DNA of 37,233 nt, from contig CAKZRR010000016.1 in the NCBI GenBank assembly GCA_937146805.1, forward strand, positions 1 through 37,233, given 5' to 3'. Position numbers and translations under genes: made by a program. Within the stretch, counting starts at the first letter, position 1. Every line of letters begins with the position of its first letter. The notes beneath the pieces were generated by a model, which ran no database searches, had not been told where the DNA came from, and saw only the letters and a program-made list of their open reading frames with translations. This document shows, piece after piece, positions 28,157-37,233 of this stretch. This DNA comes from an uncultured Owenweeksia sp. GTDB lineage: Bacteria > Bacteroidota > Bacteroidia > Flavobacteriales > Schleiferiaceae.

Positions 28157-28193
28157 GTGTAGTTTTAGATAGCAGATGCTAAGTTCCAATTTT

Positions 28194-28967
28194 ATGAAAA
28201 AGATTATTTTATTACTGGCTTTAATCATTAATTGCCGTGCCTTTGGGCAATTGGCAAACGGAAGTGTGGCACCTGATTTTACGCTTACCGATTATTATGG
28301 AAATACCCATAATCTGTACAGTTACCTAAATAGTGGCAAAACTGTTTACTTGGAAATTTTTGCAGCGCATTGTCCGGGCTGCTGGAGTTACCACCAAACA
28401 CGTACATTGAAAAGTTTGTATAATTTGTATGGGCCAAGCGGTACCAATGAAATAATGGTTTTAGCCTTAGAGCATGATGAGTACAACGATTCTAATGCTT
28501 TTAAAGGTATTGGTGACCCGTGGGTTACACAGGGTAATTGGTTAACCGGTACACCTTATCCGCAGTTTAATGTAGAGGGCTGGCCAGATCGTAATGTGTT
28601 TGTTGATTATAAGGTTACGTCTTACCCAATTGTATATAAAATCTGCCCCAATAAAATTTTAGAACGTGTATATACTTCTGCTACGCAGCAGCAGCTTTAC
28701 CAAAAGGCACAAAACTGCCAAACCATGTCTATTAGCGAAGAGCAGGTAGGTTGGGAGCTTTACTATAACCACCTTTCGGGAAAGGTTGTGGTAAACCACC
28801 TCGAAAAAATTGAAGCGGTTACCATTATAAACCTTAATGGACAGTTGGTTAAAAAGCTAAATTCGGTGCCCATTTCAACCATTGATGTTAGCGATTTGGC
28901 AGAAGGGGTTTACTTCTTTAAAGTTAAAACGGAATCGGACTTACTGATTAAGAAACTACAATTGTAA
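28194..28967 (+). CDS. Secreted thioredoxin-fold protein with T9SS sorting domain
   Basis: 257 aa from the ATG at 28194 (an in-frame ATG at 28176 adds six residues before the usual MKK start). Seen: signal peptide ending CRAFGQ, a peroxiredoxin/TlpA-like domain with PDFTLTDYYGN and a redox-type CPGC motif (Cys60, Cys63), and a short C-terminal type IX sorting domain (KVVVNHLEKIEAVTIINLNGQLVKKL...FFKVKTES). A C-terminal sorting signal on a thioredoxin fold implies a disulfide-active or structural protein at the cell surface, not the usual periplasmic TlpA. The partner is unknown. Confidence 0.85.
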   Translation: MKKIILLLALIINCRAFGQLANGSVAPDFTLTDYYGNTHNLYSYLNSGKTVYLEIFAAHCPGCWSYHQTRTLKSLYNLYGPSGTNEIMVLALEHDEYNDSNAFKGIGDPWVTQGNWLTGTPYPQFNVEGWPDRNVFVDYKVTSYPIVYKICPNKILERVYTSATQQQLYQKAQNCQTMSISEEQVGWELYYNHLSGKVVVNHLEKIEAVTIINLNGQLVKKLNSVPISTIDVSDLAEGVYFFKVKTESDLLIKKLQL

Positions 28968-29005: not shown

Positions 29006-29713
29006 CTAATCGGCCAGCATTATTATTTCAGATTGCCACATACCGTTAATATTTACATACATTAAGTAAGAGCCTTTTGGATATTTGGCAAGGCTAAAGC
29101 GCTGTTTTTGGCTTTGTATTTCTTCTCGTTTTTCTAACAATTTACCATCCATATCTAATATTAAAACAGATTTAATATTGTTGGTAGCTTCCAAATTAAT
29201 CACACCGGTGGTGGGGTTAGGGAAAGCACTGTATCCTTTTTCCAGTAGGTTTAACTCATTGGTGTTAAGAGCGGGTTCGCTCGTAGTTAATGTATCGGTA
29301 AATTGAATTGGGAGTAGGGGCTGACGTGGTGTTGGTGCAATGCAACAAGTTATCCAGCATACAGTAACCACATCCATATCACAAGAAGCCATTTTTAATT
29401 TGAAGTTTTGGATGGTAGGTATATTGGGGCTGATAAGCACTTCATTAATTTTTACTTTGGCGTATTCTATGCTGCTTACTTCTACGGAGTAGGTGCCTGC
29501 CGCAACTGGGTTAATGTGATAGTTTCCCTCAAAATCGGTAGCAGCGCCAGCTATAACAGCTCCCTTTTCGGTTTTAATAACCACATTTACAAAGGGCAAG
29601 GTTTCCAATGTTTTTTCATCAACAATATTGCCTTTAATACTTCCGGGCCTTTTTTGTGCTGCTAGGTTTAAGCTTAATCCAATCAAAAACAAAAGGCTGT
29701 ATAAATTTCTCAT
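29006..29713 (-). CDS. Secreted CarboxypepD_reg-like T9SS cargo
   Basis: 235 aa from ATG 29713 (a GTG two codons earlier also opens the frame). Seen: signal peptide, a carboxypeptidase-regulatory-like beta domain (GSIKGNIVDEKTLETLPFVNVVIK... AAGTYSVEVSSIEY, about 25-110), a Cys-rich stretch CWITCC near residue 122, and a type IX sorting domain from SAFPNPTTGVINLE to the end. The N-terminal domain is the one found ahead of TonB-dependent receptor plugs, here free-standing. Convergent with the thioredoxin-like gene. Confidence 0.85.
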   Translation of the reverse strand: MRNLYSLLFLIGLSLNLAAQKRPGSIKGNIVDEKTLETLPFVNVVIKTEKGAVIAGAATDFEGNYHINPVAAGTYSVEVSSIEYAKVKINEVLISPNIPTIQNFKLKMASCDMDVVTVCWITCCIAPTPRQPLLPIQFTDTLTTSEPALNTNELNLLEKGYSAFPNPTTGVINLEATNNIKSVLILDMDGKLLEKREEIQSQKQRFSLAKYPKGSYLMYVNINGMWQSEIIMLAD

Positions 29714-29945
29714 AATCACAGAGTTTTAAGTTAATAATTAGGCTACCCTTTTTTGCCGGCTATAAAAAGTGTTTGCCGTTTAGTATTAGAAGGCAAAAAA
29801 TAAAAAAGGTTGCACGAGGTACGAGCTAAACTCATTTTGCAGCTCGATAAATAGAAGATTACGCTATTTTTTTTGTAATTTTTGCAAATGTAATAAGTTG
29901 ATTAACAGAATTGTAGTATTGTAGCTTCACCTAAAACCACCAATA

Positions 29946-32387
29946 ATGACTTATCTAGTAAAATCGTTTCGAGCGTTATTATCCACGGTCCTAATGCTTA
30001 TTTCTTTTACCGTTGTAGCGCAAGATGTCTCTGTATCCGTTGGTAGCTCTCGAACTATTATTCCACCCTATATCCGAGACCTAGAAAGCGCTTTGGATCT
30101 TTTTCTAATTGATTTGAATTGTAATTTTCAGCAAGCTACCGAGGTGTTAATGGTTATTGAACTTACCGAAGACGAACTGGGACGAATTGCTTTTGGAGAG
30201 AGTGAGGTGATGTACATTCCTAATACTTCTTTTCAGCGTACTATTTCAAATACCGAGTTTACGCAGTGGGATACTTGGGAGTTTGATGAAAATATGAAGC
30301 AGCAGTTTTTGGAAACCAATAGGTTGCCAGATGGGGTTTATAATCTTTGTGTGGAGGTGATCCCGGTAGATAACCCAGCGCCATTAAGCCAGTTTTGCTA
30401 TTTATTTGAAATATTTTTACCCAATAACGTACAGCTAATTATGCCTGATGATGAATCGGATGTAGTAGTAGAAACGCCCAACTTTGTTTGGACTCCTGTT
30501 AATTGGATGACACCTCTTAACTACTTTCTAAAGGTGGTAGAGATATTTCAAGGACAAACCCCACAAGATGCGATGGCCACAAATCAGCCTTTGGCCGAAC
30601 ATCTTTTACTTCAGCAAACCAGTTATTTGTATTCCATGCAAGATTTGCCATTGGAAGAAGGTAAAAGTTATGCTTGGCAGGTAACCAGTGTGGATGAATT
30701 TGATAACGCAATTGGTGAAAATGGCGGTGAAAGTGAGGTGTTTAGTTTTAATTATGTAGGAAACGCCATGGGAGGTGATTTGAATACCTGGCAAGATTCA
30801 GTAAGACGATTTACCGACCCAGCTTATCTGCAAGGAGCAAGTCTTAAAAAGGATCCTTGCCCGCCCATCAAAGAGTTGATTGCCAGTATTCAATCTAAAT
30901 TATTGAAAGCGCGCGCTAAACATCAAAAAGCAAGTTTAAAAAAGGCAGAAGGTGAAACACAGGCCTCCAATGGCAAAGCTGCTAAAGAAGATGCAGATAA
31001 TAAAATGGGTGATGCTCAAAAAAAACACGATCAAGCCAATCAACAGCGTGATGGATGGTTGTCAGCGGCCAATAACTCAACGGGTGCTAAGGTGATTAAA
31101 GCGAATGATGATTGTTCGGGAGGTGCGCTTATTGGTGCTGGCAATGGAGGTTCTTTGAAGTTGGATGCAGGTACGGCTTTATGTATTCCATCCAGCAAAA
31201 TTAGTGCGTGGTTGGCGGCCTTTAACAAGGTGCGAAGTGAATACGAAGCCAGTGTAAAGGCTTTGGCAGAAGCGGCTGGTAAACTGGCAGATTTAAAGGC
31301 GCAAAAGGAACAGGGCGAAAAGGATGAAAAAGATGGAAAGGATAAGGCAGCCGAAGGAAAATCAGAGGCCGAAGCCGCTCAAAAAGAAATTGACGAACTA
31401 GAGAAAGCGTTGCAAGATTTAGAGCCTGCGGCTAAGGAGTGTGATGAAATAATAAAGAACTTAAAAGCTGCAGCAGCTAAGGCTAATTCGGCTATTAGCG
31501 ATGCAGGTAGTAAACTGGTAGGTCCAAGCGACAAAGGTTATAAAGGAGGAAGCGCAGCAGGCGGACACGTTAAAAAAGGAGAAGATAAGCTCAAAGAAGC
31601 ACAAGATGCCTTTGAAAAGGGAGATTATACAAAGGCGGAGACATTAGCAGCCGAGGCTGGTTTAGAAGCGGGTAAATCGGGTATTGCGGCTGATAGAGAA
31701 GATTGCTACGAAGAGGCCAAAGAAAAAGTTGAAAAAGCTAAGCAGGCTTTGGCTGACGGTAAGAAGAAGAATCCCAAAAGTGATTATGGAGTTGCTGAAA
31801 AAGCGTTGGCAGATGCCGAAAAGGCATTGGCTGAATTGAAAGCGGCCATTGCAGATGGAGACTATGGTAGGGCAGAAATGTTATGTAACAGAGTGATGCA
31901 GATTATTACCAACGAGTTTTATCCTCCTTTTGAAGCCATAGTGTGTAATGAAGGGGATGTTATTCCCGGTCAACGGAAATTTATTACGGAGTATAAAGCG
32001 GGTTATTTTTATACGACCACCCAGTTGGCTCCTGGGAATATTGGTTTTGAACTTAAAAAATTCTTTACCGCAATACGAGATCCTTTAGGAATTGCCTCTA
32101 TGGTGAATAGCGTGTATGCTCTTTCCAGCACGGGTCACGCTTATGATATTTATGAGGTTTGGGTGAAGAGTTACGGTACATCAGATTCAAAATGTGTGAA
32201 CGGTGTATGGGTAGATCAGAACTTACGAGATATCTATAGAGAAGCCTACTTGGTAAAGGTTAAGGAGACCGTTAGAGGCGAGGAAATTTCTAAAATTATG
32301 GTAGAACAAAATTTTAAGAATATTCACAATAGCTTTTTAGATATTAAGATTGATAAGTTTATTGAGAAAATCCAAAAACACCTGTAA
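29946..32387 (+). CDS. Exported TANFOR/FN3-like coiled-coil protein
   Basis: 813 aa. Seen: signal peptide (MTYLVKSFRALLSTVLMLI...VVAQ), an N-terminal beta region with two Cys-flanked stretches (LNCNFQQ; YNLCVEV), a segment at about 158-270 with the pattern TPNFVWTPV... KVVEIFQGQTPQDAM... PLEEGKSYAWQV... GESEVFSF, which resembles the TANFOR domain of Bacteroidota, then a long Ala/Lys/Glu-rich alpha-helical stretch (about 305-650) interrupted by a glycine-rich, Cys-containing tip (380-415), and a mixed C-terminal domain (655-813). The helix-tip-helix layout suggests an antiparallel coiled-coil hairpin. It is translationally adjacent (1 bp) to the beta-barrel gene. Function unknown. Confidence 0.82.
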   Translation: MTYLVKSFRALLSTVLMLISFTVVAQDVSVSVGSSRTIIPPYIRDLESALDLFLIDLNCNFQQATEVLMVIELTEDELGRIAFGESEVMYIPNTSFQRTISNTEFTQWDTWEFDENMKQQFLETNRLPDGVYNLCVEVIPVDNPAPLSQFCYLFEIFLPNNVQLIMPDDESDVVVETPNFVWTPVNWMTPLNYFLKVVEIFQGQTPQDAMATNQPLAEHLLLQQTSYLYSMQDLPLEEGKSYAWQVTSVDEFDNAIGENGGESEVFSFNYVGNAMGGDLNTWQDSVRRFTDPAYLQGASLKKDPCPPIKELIASIQSKLLKARAKHQKASLKKAEGETQASNGKAAKEDADNKMGDAQKKHDQANQQRDGWLSAANNSTGAKVIKANDDCSGGALIGAGNGGSLKLDAGTALCIPSSKISAWLAAFNKVRSEYEASVKALAEAAGKLADLKAQKEQGEKDEKDGKDKAAEGKSEAEAAQKEIDELEKALQDLEPAAKECDEIIKNLKAAAAKANSAISDAGSKLVGPSDKGYKGGSAAGGHVKKGEDKLKEAQDAFEKGDYTKAETLAAEAGLEAGKSGIAADREDCYEEAKEKVEKAKQALADGKKKNPKSDYGVAEKALADAEKALAELKAAIADGDYGRAEMLCNRVMQIITNEFYPPFEAIVCNEGDVIPGQRKFITEYKAGYFYTTTQLAPGNIGFELKKFFTAIRDPLGIASMVNSVYALSSTGHAYDIYEVWVKSYGTSDSKCVNGVWVDQNLRDIYREAYLVKVKETVRGEEISKIMVEQNFKNIHNSFLDIKIDKFIEKIQKHL

Positions 32388-32388
32388 A

Positions 32389-34071
32389 ATGTGGAAGTAT
32401 ATAGCAGTGGGCATTTTGGTGCTGCCTGTATCGTTGCTTTCGCAGGATAAAAAGCCGTGGGTGGTAAAAGGGCAGTGGCAAGCCAGTTTATTTGGTTACA
32501 GTTCGGATGGTATTGGACACCGCAGAGAGCCGTTGCGCTATCAACTTAATTTCAATCCACGTTTAAGCAAGGGCAATTGGGATATTCCTCTGGAACTAAG
32601 CCTTTACAATGTGGGTTTCGATTCCGATTATCAATTTGCGCGCTTTGGGATTCACCCCACTTGGAAATGGGGAAAAATACATGCTGGTCATACTAATTTG
32701 AAAGTATCCAGCTTTAGCTTAAACGGACGGACCCTTTTGGGTACAGGATTAGAGCTTACACCTGGCGTGCTGCGCTTTACGGTGTTATGGGGGCAAACGG
32801 CCACGGCAGCTAATTCGCCACTTACTAATCGGGTGCAACCCAATGCCTTTGCAACCGAAATGCTTACAGTAAAATTGGGAGTTGGAAACCGCAATCACTT
32901 TTTGGATTTGATTTACCTCAAGGGCGAAGATCAAGCAGGAACGATAGATAGCAGCCGTCTTTATTTAGACCAGTATCCTGCCGAAAATTTGGTATTAGCA
33001 GCCCGCACCGAGCATTACTTTTTTAAAAGAAAATGGTTTGTAGGAGGTGAGTTTGCCGGCTCGGCCTACAATTGGAATCAAAACTCTTTGGCCTTGGCTG
33101 AGGTTACGGATGATTTGCCGAGTATTCCAAACTGGTTGCTAGATCCAACCGTGGCCACACAGCTTTCTACAGCAATGGAGGCTTTTGTGGGTTTTCGAAA
33201 TCGAAAATTCAACACCAAAATTCAATATCAAAAAATAGGAGCGGGATTTCGCTCAATGGGCAGTTACTTTTTTCAAGATGATTTGGAGAAAATTGATTTG
33301 AGCTTAGGTTTTCGAATGCTGAAAAATAAATTGCGGGTGAAAACAAGTGCCGGCTTCCGCCAAAATAATTTAAGCGATGATAAGTCATTAAAAACGGTTC
33401 GAAGTCAAGGGTTGCTCAATCTCTATTTTAGACCCAATGCAAAGTGGAATTTTAATGGAACGTATTCCAATTATCAAACCGAACAAACAGTAAAAACCTT
33501 AGGTTCTCGCGATTCGCTACGCACAGCGTTGGTTTCGAGCAATTTGAATATTGGCGCGCAATACAATCGAATAGGAAGCAAAAAATACAATCATCAATTT
33601 AGTTTGCGTGGAGGTATGCAAACAGCAGCCGATAGATATAAGCTAGAAGGCGGAATGGGAGAAACTCAAAATTATTTGACTTCCCTAAATTATAGAATGC
33701 AAACCCCTAAAAAGAAGTTAGAGTTGAGAGGAGGCTTGGAGTATTTTGGACTGAACTCTGACTTTCAAGAGAGTGCACGCTATGGCGGCAGTGTAGCGGG
33801 TCTTTTTAATCTAAAGAAGAATAAGTTGCAACTGGGTATCGGTTCGAGACAAATTATAAGTGATAATCAAAAGAGTGCCGATGCGATAAGTATTATGCCT
33901 TATGTAACAGCAGGATGGAGAGCCAATACATGGAAAAATTTTACGCTTCGTTTACAGTATAATCATCAAGAGATTAAAAATAATGCAAGCCCTAGTTTTA
34001 ACGAATGGCAGTTTACCGCACGTTACAATCATAGGTTTAAGGGTAAGTCCAAAAAATCTTTACCAAAGTAA
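32389..34071 (+). CDS. Outer-membrane beta-barrel candidate
   Basis: 560 aa from ATG 32389, one base after the stop of the coiled-coil gene (a TTG at 32350 inside that gene also opens the frame but is unlikely). Seen: signal peptide (MWKYIAVGILVLPVSLLSQ) and a body of about 18-20 alternating hydrophobic/polar strands with frequent aromatic girdle residues (for example FNTKIQYQKIGAG, KNFTLRLQYNHQE, FTARYNHRFKG). No plug domain or TonB box seen. The last strand ends in Phe-Tyr-rich sequence a few residues from the C-terminus. A barrel is inferred from strand pattern, not from a named family. Confidence 0.78.
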   Translation: MWKYIAVGILVLPVSLLSQDKKPWVVKGQWQASLFGYSSDGIGHRREPLRYQLNFNPRLSKGNWDIPLELSLYNVGFDSDYQFARFGIHPTWKWGKIHAGHTNLKVSSFSLNGRTLLGTGLELTPGVLRFTVLWGQTATAANSPLTNRVQPNAFATEMLTVKLGVGNRNHFLDLIYLKGEDQAGTIDSSRLYLDQYPAENLVLAARTEHYFFKRKWFVGGEFAGSAYNWNQNSLALAEVTDDLPSIPNWLLDPTVATQLSTAMEAFVGFRNRKFNTKIQYQKIGAGFRSMGSYFFQDDLEKIDLSLGFRMLKNKLRVKTSAGFRQNNLSDDKSLKTVRSQGLLNLYFRPNAKWNFNGTYSNYQTEQTVKTLGSRDSLRTALVSSNLNIGAQYNRIGSKKYNHQFSLRGGMQTAADRYKLEGGMGETQNYLTSLNYRMQTPKKKLELRGGLEYFGLNSDFQESARYGGSVAGLFNLKKNKLQLGIGSRQIISDNQKSADAISIMPYVTAGWRANTWKNFTLRLQYNHQEIKNNASPSFNEWQFTARYNHRFKGKSKKSLPK

Positions 34072-34115: not shown

Positions 34116-35039
34116 CTACCTCACCAATAAATAGGTCATGAGCTTAGGAATATTCTTTTCACTGATAACCATAGTGTAGGCTCCTGCTGGTAAATTATTG
34201 CGACCTATTTCAATGGAGCTTGGACTGAAAACATTTTCGCTTTTGAGAGCTTGCCCTTGTAAGTTGTAAATAGTGTACGAACCATTGGTGATTTGATGTC
34301 CTTCTAGGTCAATTCGAGTTTTATGCGAAAAAGGGTTGGGGTACGCTTTTACTTTGGTTAATGCATTTTCATCTAGGCTGGCGCAGATACCTGTACCATT
34401 TATAAACAAATTGTCAATCATCCAACCATCTTTGGGGTTGTGGATAGAATCGCTAACGAAAGTAAAACGCAATAAAAACGTGGGGTAGGTTTTAAAAGCC
34501 CAGCAATGAAAGTGAATCTCAGCATGCTGCCACCCATTTGATTTACCGCTAAATCCTATTCGATTGTTGGGTAAAAAATCAGTTAATCCATAAAATCCTA
34601 CGGTACTAGAGATAGCCCACCAATCAAAAGGGTAATTGCTCGGACTGGCTGATAATACCAGTGTGTCTCTCAAACGCAGCCAGCTTGCTCCGTTGTCGTT
34701 TGAAATTTCAATGAATCCTCCGTCTTTTAAACTATCGGTATCAAATCGATGATCAAACTCAATTACAGGCATGTTGCCGTTTAAAGTAAAGCCAACTGTA
34801 AAACTCGAATTGCTGTTAATAGAATATGGACTTGCAGTATCTGTTACGATTACATTTGGAGCCGAAAGGGCTGAGTCAAATATGGTTTTGTTCGGAGGTC
34901 CTACCTGCCATAAGTTGTTGGGGTTTGTGGTGTCAATACTTAGCATGTTGGAAGGGCTGTCAAAGTTGAGGATTTGAATTTGAGCCGACAAAAAACAGGA
35001 AACAAAGATTAATAGGGCGGTTAGTAATTTAGACATCAT
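34116..35039 (-). CDS. Secreted MAM-like T9SS cargo
   Basis: 307 aa. Two ATGs (35039 and 35036) start it. Seen: signal peptide, a jelly-roll domain (about 25-215) with the MAM-like signature: ...PNNLWQVGPP, MPVIEFDHRFDTDSLKDGGFIEISNDNGASW, FSGKSNGW, FLLRFTFVSDS and KDGWMIDNLFING, then a linker and a type IX sorting domain (AYPNPFSHKTRIDLEG... YLLVR). Presumably a surface adhesion or binding module. Stands alone on the minus strand, just after the FBPase terminator. Confidence 0.85.
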   Translation of the reverse strand: MMSKLLTALLIFVSCFLSAQIQILNFDSPSNMLSIDTTNPNNLWQVGPPNKTIFDSALSAPNVIVTDTASPYSINSNSSFTVGFTLNGNMPVIEFDHRFDTDSLKDGGFIEISNDNGASWLRLRDTLVLSASPSNYPFDWWAISSTVGFYGLTDFLPNNRIGFSGKSNGWQHAEIHFHCWAFKTYPTFLLRFTFVSDSIHNPKDGWMIDNLFINGTGICASLDENALTKVKAYPNPFSHKTRIDLEGHQITNGSYTIYNLQGQALKSENVFSPSSIEIGRNNLPAGAYTMVISEKNIPKLMTYLLVR

Positions 35040-36306: not shown

Positions 36307-37233
36307 TTATTCGATTAGGAGCTGATGGGTGCTAGTATGATTAGCAGATAAAATTCTTAGCAAATAGACTCCTTTGGCAAGGTTTAGATTTAACTCTAAA
36401 GACTTTTCGTTTTTTATTTTTTGATGGTACACAATTGTACCAATGGTTGATGTAATCTGCAAAGTGCCTTCAAAGGAGTGGTCGGGAAACTCAATTAAAA
36501 AAGTGCCATTATTTGGATTTGGAAAAATACTAAGATTGGATGATCTTAATTCTGCTAGGTTTACGTCAGTTATGGCATAGCAGGAAGAAGTATCTGTGCA
36601 TCCGTTTTCAGTGACAACAACTGCATAGTTTCCATTTAAATTGGGCTTAAAAGTCTTAAACGTTTCGGCTGGCAGAACAGCAAAGTTGTTATCACAATCA
36701 ACCCATTGATAGGTTGCATTTAGTGCACTAGCTATTAGCTCGCTCGTCATAATTTGCACATTGGTATTTACTTTTCTAATGGTTAAATCCAAGCTTATAA
36801 TCGAGTCGCAGCCATTAGAATTTGTTAAGGTGTGCGTAGCTGTGTTGTTGTTTGTAAAGTAAGTAATTCCGTCAATCCATTTATAATAGTTACATGCCGA
36901 TACTTGATCTATCCTTGTATTGGAAGTAGATATGGTTAAATTCAGAGTTACAATTGAGTCGCACCCATTTTGGTCAATTAGTGTATCAGTGGCGGTGCTG
37001 TTACTGGTGGTATAGGTAATGTTGTCAATCCATGTAAAACTGTTACATGCCGAAACGGTATCAGTACCATTTTTAGCGGGTAGGATTGTCAAGTTCAGAG
37101 TTACAATTGAGTCGCACCCATTTTGGTCAATTAGCGTATCAGTTGCTGAGTTGTTGCTGGTGGTATAGGTAATGTTGTCAATCCATGTAAAACTGTTACA
37201 TGCCGAAACGGTATCAGTACCATTTTTAGCGGG
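36307..37233 (-). CDS. Repeat-rich T9SS surface protein (C-terminal part)
   Basis: Open in this frame to the window edge, so the N-terminal part is missing; the frame is not closed by any start within the window (a TTG at 37092 is internal to a repeat). Seen: two complete copies and one more divergent copy of a 51-aa 'NGCDSIVTLNLTI' repeat with ACNSFTWIDNITYTTSN motifs, then a non-repeat segment (TSELIASALNATYQWVDCDNNF) with an Ig-like look, and a type IX sorting domain (SIFPNPNNGTFLIEF... HQLLIE). A surface adhesin-like protein of variable length is the likely type. Confidence 0.85.
   Translation of the reverse strand, partial: PAKNGTDTVSACNSFTWIDNITYTTSNNSATDTLIDQNGCDSIVTLNLTILPAKNGTDTVSACNSFTWIDNITYTTSNSTATDTLIDQNGCDSIVTLNLTISTSNTRIDQVSACNYYKWIDGITYFTNNNTATHTLTNSNGCDSIISLDLTIRKVNTNVQIMTSELIASALNATYQWVDCDNNFAVLPAETFKTFKPNLNGNYAVVVTENGCTDTSSCYAITDVNLAELRSSNLSIFPNPNNGTFLIEFPDHSFEGTLQITSTIGTIVYHQKIKNEKSLELNLNLAKGVYLLRILSANHTSTHQLLIE
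36928..37233. repeat. Tandem 153-bp coding repeats
   Basis: The unit 36928-37080 recurs at 37081-37233. From about 36943 to 37080 the two differ by about six bases of 138 by eye. A third, more divergent copy occupies about 36775-36927. Period 153 bp, i.e. 51 codons, so copy changes stay in frame. Confidence 0.9.

What the first reader, a model, noticed from the sequence alone, without database searches (positions are those of the whole stretch)
29946..34071. Uncharacterised exported pair: TANFOR-like coiled-coil protein plus outer-membrane barrel
An 813-aa exported protein with a fibronectin/TANFOR-like head and a 340-residue coiled-coil hairpin with a glycine-rich tip lies one base upstream of a 560-aa beta-barrel candidate. 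The helical arms are long enough to span a good part of the periplasm, or to project from the surface. The tight coupling suggests a complex, perhaps a barrel with an extended periplasmic or surface rod. I know of no described function for this arrangement.
Basis: partly seen in the sequence, partly recalled or inferred. Interest (0 to 1): 0.65.

Follow-up and report, generated by a model that had tools for sequence, protein, structure and literature searches.

The report
TANFOR-headed rod with partner outer-membrane barrel
Two neighbouring genes encode an exported helical rod whose head resembles that of a known family of bacterial toxins, plus a predicted outer-membrane barrel of a family found beside such heads across the phylum, which points to how those proteins may reach the cell surface.

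Summary
The pair is real and tightly coupled: 813 aa, one base, 560 aa. A second genome of the same family carries it (50% and 42% identity). It is one branch of a widespread Bacteroidota cassette, not an isolated oddity. The 813-aa head (TANFOR plus fn3-like, residues 27-272) is homologous to N-termini of TANFOR polymorphic toxins, described in 2020 with unknown export route. The 560-aa protein belongs to a barrel-like family without a curated Pfam/NCBIfam match in the members scanned. In 395 genomes of the order, all 20 with a head match are among the 29 with the barrel. Of 47 hand-picked barrels, 44 have a TANFOR-headed gene on the same strand within about 17 kb, 32 directly adjacent; one partner ends in a colicin-type DNase. 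The window's partner has no recognised toxin, immunity gene or T9SS signal; its body is helical and found in two genomes only. SprA (T9SS translocon) is present in all 47 cassette genomes tested, against 154 of 198 sampled. I propose that the barrel is a cargo-specific outer-membrane shuttle or anchor reading an N-terminal head: it works like PorP/SprF but is not detectably related. Structure models were too poor to show barrel fold or complex.

The parts
29946..30023 (+). signal peptide of the 813-aa protein (residues 1-26, ends ...VVAQ)
   Evidence: read from the translation; least conserved region, 31% identity between the two orthologues
30024..30761 (+). TANFOR plus fn3-like head (residues 27-272)
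   Evidence: home-made head profile (window is a seed) E=5e-117; profile A2 hits heads of other proteins at E down to 1.6e-16; 60% (TANFOR part) and 46% (fn3-like part) identity to the orthologue
30762..30854 (+). linker with conserved D-P-C-P (residues 273-303)
   Evidence: alignment
30855..31079 (+). first helical stretch (residues 304-378)
   Evidence: helices in a low-confidence model; no significant heptad period
31080..31193 (+). conserved insert without predicted helix, GGSLxLDAGTxLxIP (residues 379-416)
   Evidence: alignment; 55% identity
31194..31517 (+). coiled-coil-like stretch (residues 417-524)
   Evidence: period 3.49, 0 of 500 shuffles as strong, computed on 417-525; helices 416-462 and 468-524, pLDDT above 70 in part
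31518..31553 (+). Gly-rich break (residues 525-536)
   Evidence: sequence; pLDDT below 50 over 508-535
31554..31949 (+). helical stretch with two GDYxxAE turns (residues 537-668)
   Evidence: GDYTKAE at 559-based numbering and GDYGRAE at 638-based numbering, same positions in the orthologue; block pLDDT 52-96
31950..32384 (+). C-terminal domain of unknown fold (residues 669-813); no toxin and no T9SS CTD recognised
   Evidence: 43% identity to the orthologue
32389..32445 (+). signal peptide of the barrel protein (residues 1-19)
   Evidence: read from the translation; starts one base after the upstream stop codon
32446..34068 (+). barrel-type outer-membrane protein (residues 20-560); last predicted strand region ends at F550 (34036-34038), followed by a short basic tail
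   Evidence: barrel profile A3 covers positions 1-560 (E=9e-184, window is a seed); weak OMP_b-brl hit E=2.6e-4, 21.6 bits against a cut-off of 28.7; beta/alpha moment ratio 1.46

Best explanation
The pair is a two-gene TANFOR-barrel cassette. SHOWN by comparison: the 813-aa protein carries the same kind of N-terminal head as TANFOR polymorphic toxins, and the 560-aa protein belongs to a barrel-type family that accompanies such heads across Bacteroidota. INFERRED: both are exported by Sec. The barrel inserts in the outer membrane and acts as the cargo-specific shuttle and anchor for the head, taking it from the T9SS translocon SprA or holding it after export, so that the body beyond the head projects from the cell surface. 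In some relatives that body ends in a toxin; here it is a helical rod with a small C-terminal domain, so the product would be a surface rod (adhesin, spacer or scaffold) and not a weapon. It would work like a PorP/SprF shuttle with its type B cargo, but reading an N-terminal head in place of a C-terminal signal.
For: Co-occurrence: in 395 genomes of the order the barrel profile hits 29 and the 813-aa profile hits 20, all 20 among the 29 (hypergeometric p 5e-27, species not independent; one of the 29, G004, is a weak barrel hit); 23 of 25 head hits lie within 14 kb of a barrel on the same strand. Neighbourhoods: 40 of 47 barrels have a head protein in the first fetched stretch, 40 of 40 on the same strand, 32 with no ORF of 100 aa or more between; four more lie 10-17 kb upstream on the same strand. 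Six of the 47 loci supplied the head seeds; without them the count is 38 of 41. All 13 phylum genomes with a TIGR02542 match have a barrel-profile match, E from 8e-47 to 9e-223, on the same contig and close in 10 of 13. Paralogues follow partner type, not genome: the two rod-associated barrels form one fully supported clade and the two giant-associated barrels of the same genomes another; the heads do likewise. Toxin bodies on such heads: Col-Pyo_DNase E=3.9e-42 and TNT E=4.5e-6. No Por_Secre_tail on 25 head proteins scanned. SprA in 47 of 47 cassette genomes against 154 of 198 phylum genomes. Precedent (abstract and Introduction read): type B cargo needs a cognate PorP/SprF shuttle, commonly encoded directly downstream (PMC12618676).
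Against: No direct interaction evidence: both structure models are poor (pLDDT 44.6 and 33.9) and the complex was not modelled. The barrel is not detectably related to PorP/SprF (hhalign probability 3%) or PorV (2%), and the window barrel has no cysteine, whereas SprF works through twin cysteines (abstract and headings of PMC12635249). In 28 of 40 neighbourhoods the barrel gene lies upstream of the head gene, not downstream as here. Two TANFOR genes (G343:C4, G268:C4) have no barrel in the 20 kb fetched around each, and three of 47 barrels have no head found nearby. Of 20 partner C-termini only two carry a toxin family over the cut-off. SprA is common in the phylum, so its presence is weak support for T9SS dependence. 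Export and surface exposure of the rod are inferred only.
Confidence: 0.5

Rival explanations
1. The barrel alone is the transporter: a two-partner-secretion-like system in which the TANFOR head is the N-terminal secretion domain and the barrel the pore, without T9SS.
For: The head is N-terminal and toxin bodies sit at the C-terminus, as in two-partner exoproteins (recalled); no T9SS type A CTD on 25 head proteins scanned; dedicated linked barrel; size 550-600 aa similar to TpsB proteins (recalled).
Against: No two-partner-secretion Pfam family on the 813-aa protein or on the 18 barrel family members scanned. SprA is present in 47 of 47 cassette genomes; of 71 phylum genomes with a barrel at E<1e-50, 53 were seen SprA-positive and the other 18 appear in neither listing; of the 20 SprA-negative genomes listed by name (of 44), the best barrel match is E=3.9e-4.
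Confidence: 0.2
2. A periplasmic complex: the head plugs or caps the barrel from inside and the helical rod reaches to peptidoglycan or inner membrane, giving envelope tethering or a conduit.
Against: In some relatives the same kind of head carries nuclease or TNT-type bodies that are not expected to act in the producer's periplasm (argument of PMC7073777); no peptidoglycan-binding or other anchor family found.
Confidence: 0.15
3. The 813-aa protein is itself a toxin: its C-terminal 145 residues are an unrecognised toxin domain.
For: Position matches the toxin position in TANFOR proteins; the C-terminal domain is the least conserved mature region (43%); many TANFOR proteins have no recognised toxin domain, and one such C-terminus proved to be a DNase (PMC7073777).
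Against: No immunity-type gene: the next gene is the barrel and then a gene on the other strand. The C-terminus is conserved between two genera together with the rest, unlike a swapped toxin end. No Pfam or NCBIfam toxin hit at E<=1.
Confidence: 0.1

Closest known systems
TANFOR polymorphic toxins (TIGR02542; Jana, Salomon and Bosis 2020, PMC7073777; parts 1 and 2 of 6 and the T9SS section read, rest searched by term)
   Same: N-terminal head homologous; signal peptide; T9SS-positive genome; two relatives of the head carry toxin C-termini over the Pfam cut-off and lie beside the same barrel family
   Different: window protein is below detection by TIGR02542, 813 aa, helical body, no recognised toxin, no immunity gene; the paper's main text does not contain the word 'barrel'
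PorP/SprF shuttles with type B CTD cargo (PMC12618676 abstract and Introduction read; PMC9143113 abstract read)
   Same: linked outer-membrane protein and exported cargo, the partner gene directly downstream as in the window; orphan cargos exist
   Different: no PF11751 match; hhalign 3%; cargo lacks a CTD, so the recognition element would be the N-terminal head; in 28 of 40 neighbourhoods the barrel gene is upstream
PorV shuttle of type A CTD cargo
   Same: outer-membrane shuttle present in the window's genome
   Different: hhalign 2%; no type A CTD on the cargo
Two-partner secretion (FhaB/FhaC, recalled)
   Same: large exoprotein and partner barrel in one operon, N-terminal recognition
   Different: no two-partner-secretion family hits

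Membership tests
TANFOR polymorphic toxin | TIGR02542 match on the window protein | tested here: not met
   no match at E<=1 nor in the head scan, where 15 of 33 heads match at E<=0.01
TANFOR polymorphic toxin | homologous N-terminal head | tested here: met
   profile A2 hits heads of other proteins; the home-made head profile finds the same region in 40 of 47 barrel neighbourhoods, six of them its own seeds
TANFOR polymorphic toxin | C-terminal toxin domain | tested here: not met
   no toxin family in Pfam or NCBIfam at E<=1; an undescribed domain remains possible
TANFOR polymorphic toxin | immunity gene downstream | tested here: not met
   next gene is the barrel, then a gene on the opposite strand at 34116-35039
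T9SS cargo with CTD | type A or type B C-terminal domain | tested here: not met
   no PF18962, TIGR04183 or TIGR04131 on the 813-aa protein
T9SS cargo or shuttle | genome encodes T9SS | tested here: met
   SprA over cut-off, PorV over cut-off, six PorP_SprF matches over cut-off, the two weakest overlapping PorV-family hits
PorP/SprF shuttle | PF11751 sequence family | tested here: not met
   no match; hhalign probability 3.2% against four PorP/SprF proteins of the same genome
PorP/SprF shuttle | gene linked to its cargo gene | tested here: met
   one-base spacing in the window; 32 of 47 family members directly adjacent to a head gene
Outer-membrane beta-barrel | closed antiparallel barrel | tested here: inconclusive
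   model pLDDT 33.9. Sequence features favour it: 25 of 32 full-length members end in F, Y or W (the window's does not, it has a basic tail after F550); no hydrophobic helix (maximum 19-residue mean 1.54); beta/alpha moment ratio 1.28 against 1.00 in 243 other proteins, 7.4% of which reach the barrel median
Two-partner secretion | transporter or exoprotein-domain family matches | tested here: not met
   no such Pfam hit on the 813-aa protein or 18 barrel family members

The most novel reading that the evidence does not exclude
TANFOR-headed proteins and this unnamed barrel family form a third cargo-shuttle class of the Bacteroidota surface-export pathway, beside PorV/type A and PorP-SprF/type B, read from an N-terminal head and delivering interchangeable C-terminal bodies: nucleases and other toxins in some lineages, a helical rod in the lineage of this window.
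Probability: 0.4. Interest if true: 0.8.

Novelty: new variant of a known kind. Interest (0 to 1): 0.62.

Why it matters
TANFOR toxins were described in 2020 with no known way out of the cell; T9SS export was proposed as a hypothesis (PMC7073777, section read). A barrel gene that lies near 23 of 25 TANFOR-headed genes found in the order, and in 13 families of the phylum, names a concrete partner to delete. The rod version shows that the head-barrel module need not come with a recognisable toxin, which would make it a cleaner system for testing what the module does. My searches of the open library ('TANFOR'; polymorphic toxin with T9SS and related terms) listed no description of the barrel link; subscription journals and preprints were not searched.

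Tried and rejected
Structure: the 813-aa protein was folded alone (pLDDT 44.6); its one orthologue could have been added and was not. The barrel was folded with its one orthologue (33.9). Both are too poor for fold searches, so none was run. PDB sequence searches gave nothing useful. SMC and helix-rich NCBIfam hits on the rod (E 8e-6 and 4e-5) were rejected as composition-driven: far below their cut-offs. The first head profile was rejected: two of its six seeds were wrong genes (a barrel and a TPR-type protein); it was rebuilt and the counts are not used. In one search, 171 of 395 genomes match the barrel profile at E<=1e-3; partial matches to 800-900-aa proteins were not counted as family, and 71 genomes remain at E<1e-50, a cut I chose. 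The 40 extra neighbourhoods were hand-picked, mostly top hits, so weaker barrels (and the second barrel of G201) were not inspected. Counted as misses: L120 (G581), L130 (barrel near the end of an 11.6-kb contig) and L139 (third copy in G159; other heads of that genome lie tens of kb away). L141 counts a truncated 336-aa barrel as a barrel. A3 was built from 18 chosen barrels; near-copies, a weak partial hit (L045) and one without ATG (L036) were left out.
Full report
WHAT IS THERE. The window (G000:C16 of an unnamed 3.16-Mb genome in 58 contigs; Bacteroidota inferred from its relatives) holds an 813-aa ORF at 29946-32387 (+). A 560-aa protein starts at 32389, a single base after the stop codon. 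Upstream lies a 226-base gap to a divergent gene; downstream a gene on the opposite strand follows, so the unit is two genes. Both proteins begin with Sec-type signal peptides without a lipobox (read from the sequence). Genome G020, another genus of the same family (record JAUHWL010000006.1, a Bacteroidia MAG), carries the same pair, 815 and 552 aa, at 50% and 42% identity.

THE 813-AA PROTEIN. Pfam and NCBIfam give no confident family. Its first 290 residues match heads of other proteins: the two-row profile A2 finds, besides the two full-length copies, 23 head-only hits, together in 20 of 395 genomes of the order, mostly in open frames of 900-2200 aa. One relative in the same genome (2179 aa, L011) has a sub-threshold TIGR02542 (TANFOR) match at E=3e-5. 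Of 33 heads, 15 match TIGR02542 at E<=0.01, but the window's head does not. Beyond the head come about 365 residues of helix-rich sequence (19% Ala, 14.5% Lys) in separate stretches. Residues 417-525 have a heptad period (3.49; 0 of 500 shuffles as strong), 537-668 have period 3.75 (1 of 500) and two GDYxxAE turns kept in the orthologue, and 304-378 show no significant period. A conserved 38-residue insert without predicted helix and a Gly-rich break interrupt them. A 145-residue C-terminal domain follows with no recognised family. Full-length copies were found only in G000 and G020: 2 of 395 order genomes, 2 of 88 family genomes, and one locus, G020's own contig, in the scan of the named genome collection.

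THE 560-AA PROTEIN. It shows only a weak OMP_b-brl match (E=2.6e-4, below cut-off). Of the 17 other family members scanned, none matches a barrel family at E<=0.1; three isolated matches at 0.03-0.09 are to unrelated families. NCBIfam was tried on four members (window, L011, L012, L015) with no match. Sequence features favour an outer-membrane barrel: of 47 members, 32 end within 8 residues of the domain end, and 25 of these 32 end in F, Y or W; the window's own does not, it has a basic tail after F550. The highest 19-residue hydropathy after residue 40 is 1.54. The beta/alpha hydrophobic moment ratio is 1.28 on average and 1.46 for the window, against 1.00 in 243 other proteins from the same neighbourhoods, 7.4% of which reach the barrel median. 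That a terminal aromatic residue marks outer-membrane barrels is recalled knowledge. The AlphaFold model with two sequences is mostly beta but has pLDDT 33.9 and proves nothing.

THE CASSETTE. The barrel profile A1 hits 29 of 395 order genomes; one, G004, is a weak partial hit. All 20 genomes with a head hit are among them, and 23 of 25 head hits lie within 14 kb of a barrel on the same strand; the other two are on contigs without a barrel hit in barrel-positive genomes. I fetched 40 more neighbourhoods, hand-picked and mostly top barrel hits of the order and phylum searches. With the seven loci in hand, 47 barrels at E<1e-50 were examined. Forty have a head protein (E<1e-5) in the stretch, all on the same strand, 32 with no ORF of 100 aa or more between; in 28 of 40 the head gene is downstream of the barrel gene, in 12 (the window among them) upstream. 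In four of the seven misses (G215, G308, G260, G206) a head gene lies 10-17 kb upstream on the same strand. Three remain without. Six loci supplied the seeds of the head profile; excluding them the count is 38 of 41. The multi-fn3 proteins in the middle of the cassettes L011 and L013 are not hit by the head profile, so it does not simply find fn3. At phylum level all 13 genomes with a TIGR02542 match (of 395; none over the curated cut-off) have a barrel-profile match at E of 8e-47 or better, a level that I count in 74 of 395 genomes; in three of the 13 (G581, G614, G715) the two lie on other contigs or far apart. Two head genes, G343:C4 and G268:C4, have no barrel in the 20 kb fetched around each; those genomes hold a barrel elsewhere.

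PARTNERS. Head proteins in these stretches range from 289 to 3928 aa; some are cut by the end of the stretch. Among 20 C-termini scanned, one has a Col-Pyo_DNase domain (E=3.9e-42) beside a barrel gene that is itself truncated (G159, L141), and one a TNT match (4.5e-6, just over cut-off, barrel 5 bases away, L146). A third has a weak ART match below cut-off (0.0017, L143). The other 17 and this one have no toxin family over the cut-off, and none of the 20 has Por_Secre_tail. Hence the barrel accompanies some polymorphic toxins, but the toxin nature of most partners here is not shown by Pfam. In the barrel tree and in the head tree (38 pairs, 13 families) the two rod-type rows form one fully supported clade, and the two giant-type rows of the same two genomes group together elsewhere: barrels follow the kind of partner, not the genome. 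Linked inheritance alone would also give this.

EXPORT ROUTE. The head proteins lack T9SS C-terminal signals where scanned: type A (Pfam) on 25, in whole or at the C-terminus, type B (NCBIfam) on 5. SprA is present in 47 of 47 cassette genomes and in 154 of 198 genomes of a phylum sample. Of the 71 phylum genomes with a barrel at E<1e-50, 53 were seen SprA-positive in these two searches; the other 18 appear in neither listing, and 24 SprA-negative genomes are not listed by name, so these 18 are undetermined. This fits use of T9SS but does not prove it. Type B cargo of T9SS depends on cognate PorP/SprF shuttles, commonly encoded directly downstream, and orphan cargos can share a shuttle (PMC12618676, abstract and Introduction read; PMC9143113, abstract read). 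The barrel here is not a PorP/SprF or PorV homologue by profile comparison (3% and 2%), whereas the two rod-type barrels align with eight other barrels of the order at 100% probability. PorP against PorV scores only 7.5% in the same test, so this test misses distant relationship between barrels. The proposal is therefore 'works like', not 'is a'.

COMPARISON WITH PRINT. Jana et al. (PMC7073777; parts 1 and 2 of the text and the T9SS section read) define TANFOR toxins and hypothesise T9SS export from enriched CTD and SprB neighbours; 'barrel' and 'coiled' do not occur in the main text. Three papers in the library contain 'TANFOR': this one, one that lists it as a trafficking domain (one passage seen) and one on an unrelated subject. 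Searches combining polymorphic toxins with T9SS listed nothing whose title or abstract start speaks of a barrel partner; those papers were not read.

VERDICT. The most likely mechanism is a dedicated outer-membrane partner for TANFOR heads, here carrying a rod in place of a recognisable toxin. Homology of the head and its linkage to the barrel family are well supported; the barrel fold, the direct binding and the surface location are inferred.

Noticed in passing
G000:C33, locus L011:5237-15526: Paralogous three-gene cassette in the window's own genome: 2179-aa TANFOR-like giant, 695-aa multi-fn3 protein, 549-aa barrel; the same order occurs in G020 (L013).
   Followed up: partly
L141:3826-15706: Two tandem TANFOR-headed genes (1023 and 1726 aa) before a truncated 336-aa barrel; the second ends in a Col-Pyo_DNase domain.
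   Followed up: partly
L143, L154, L155, L156, L157, L158: Five to eight ORFs of 100 aa or more lie between a TANFOR-headed gene and the barrel gene in L143 and L154-L157, and a run of short same-strand ORFs follows the head gene in L158. They may be toxin or immunity genes but were not identified.
   Followed up: no
L015, L016, L140, L142, L145, L147, L148, L152, L153, L156, L157: In family f3 many barrel proteins are 815-848 aa, with about 250 residues after the barrel region; no confident Pfam match on the two scanned.
   Followed up: no
G343:C4 (L164) and G268:C4 (L165): TANFOR-headed genes without a barrel in the 20 kb fetched; the genomes hold a barrel elsewhere, so one barrel may serve several cargos.
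   Followed up: partly
window 28176-28967, 29006-29719, 34116-35039, 36307-37092: Four neighbours carry Por_Secre_tail T9SS signals, including a redoxin-like protein and a CarboxypepD_reg protein.
   Followed up: no
L161:8026-9283: The TANFOR head gene of G206 appears spread over two ORFs (292 and 132 aa), so it may be broken there.
   Followed up: no
L127:5483-7555: A 690-aa TANFOR-headed protein ends in a coiled-coil-like tail by eye, another case of a non-giant body on this head.
   Followed up: no
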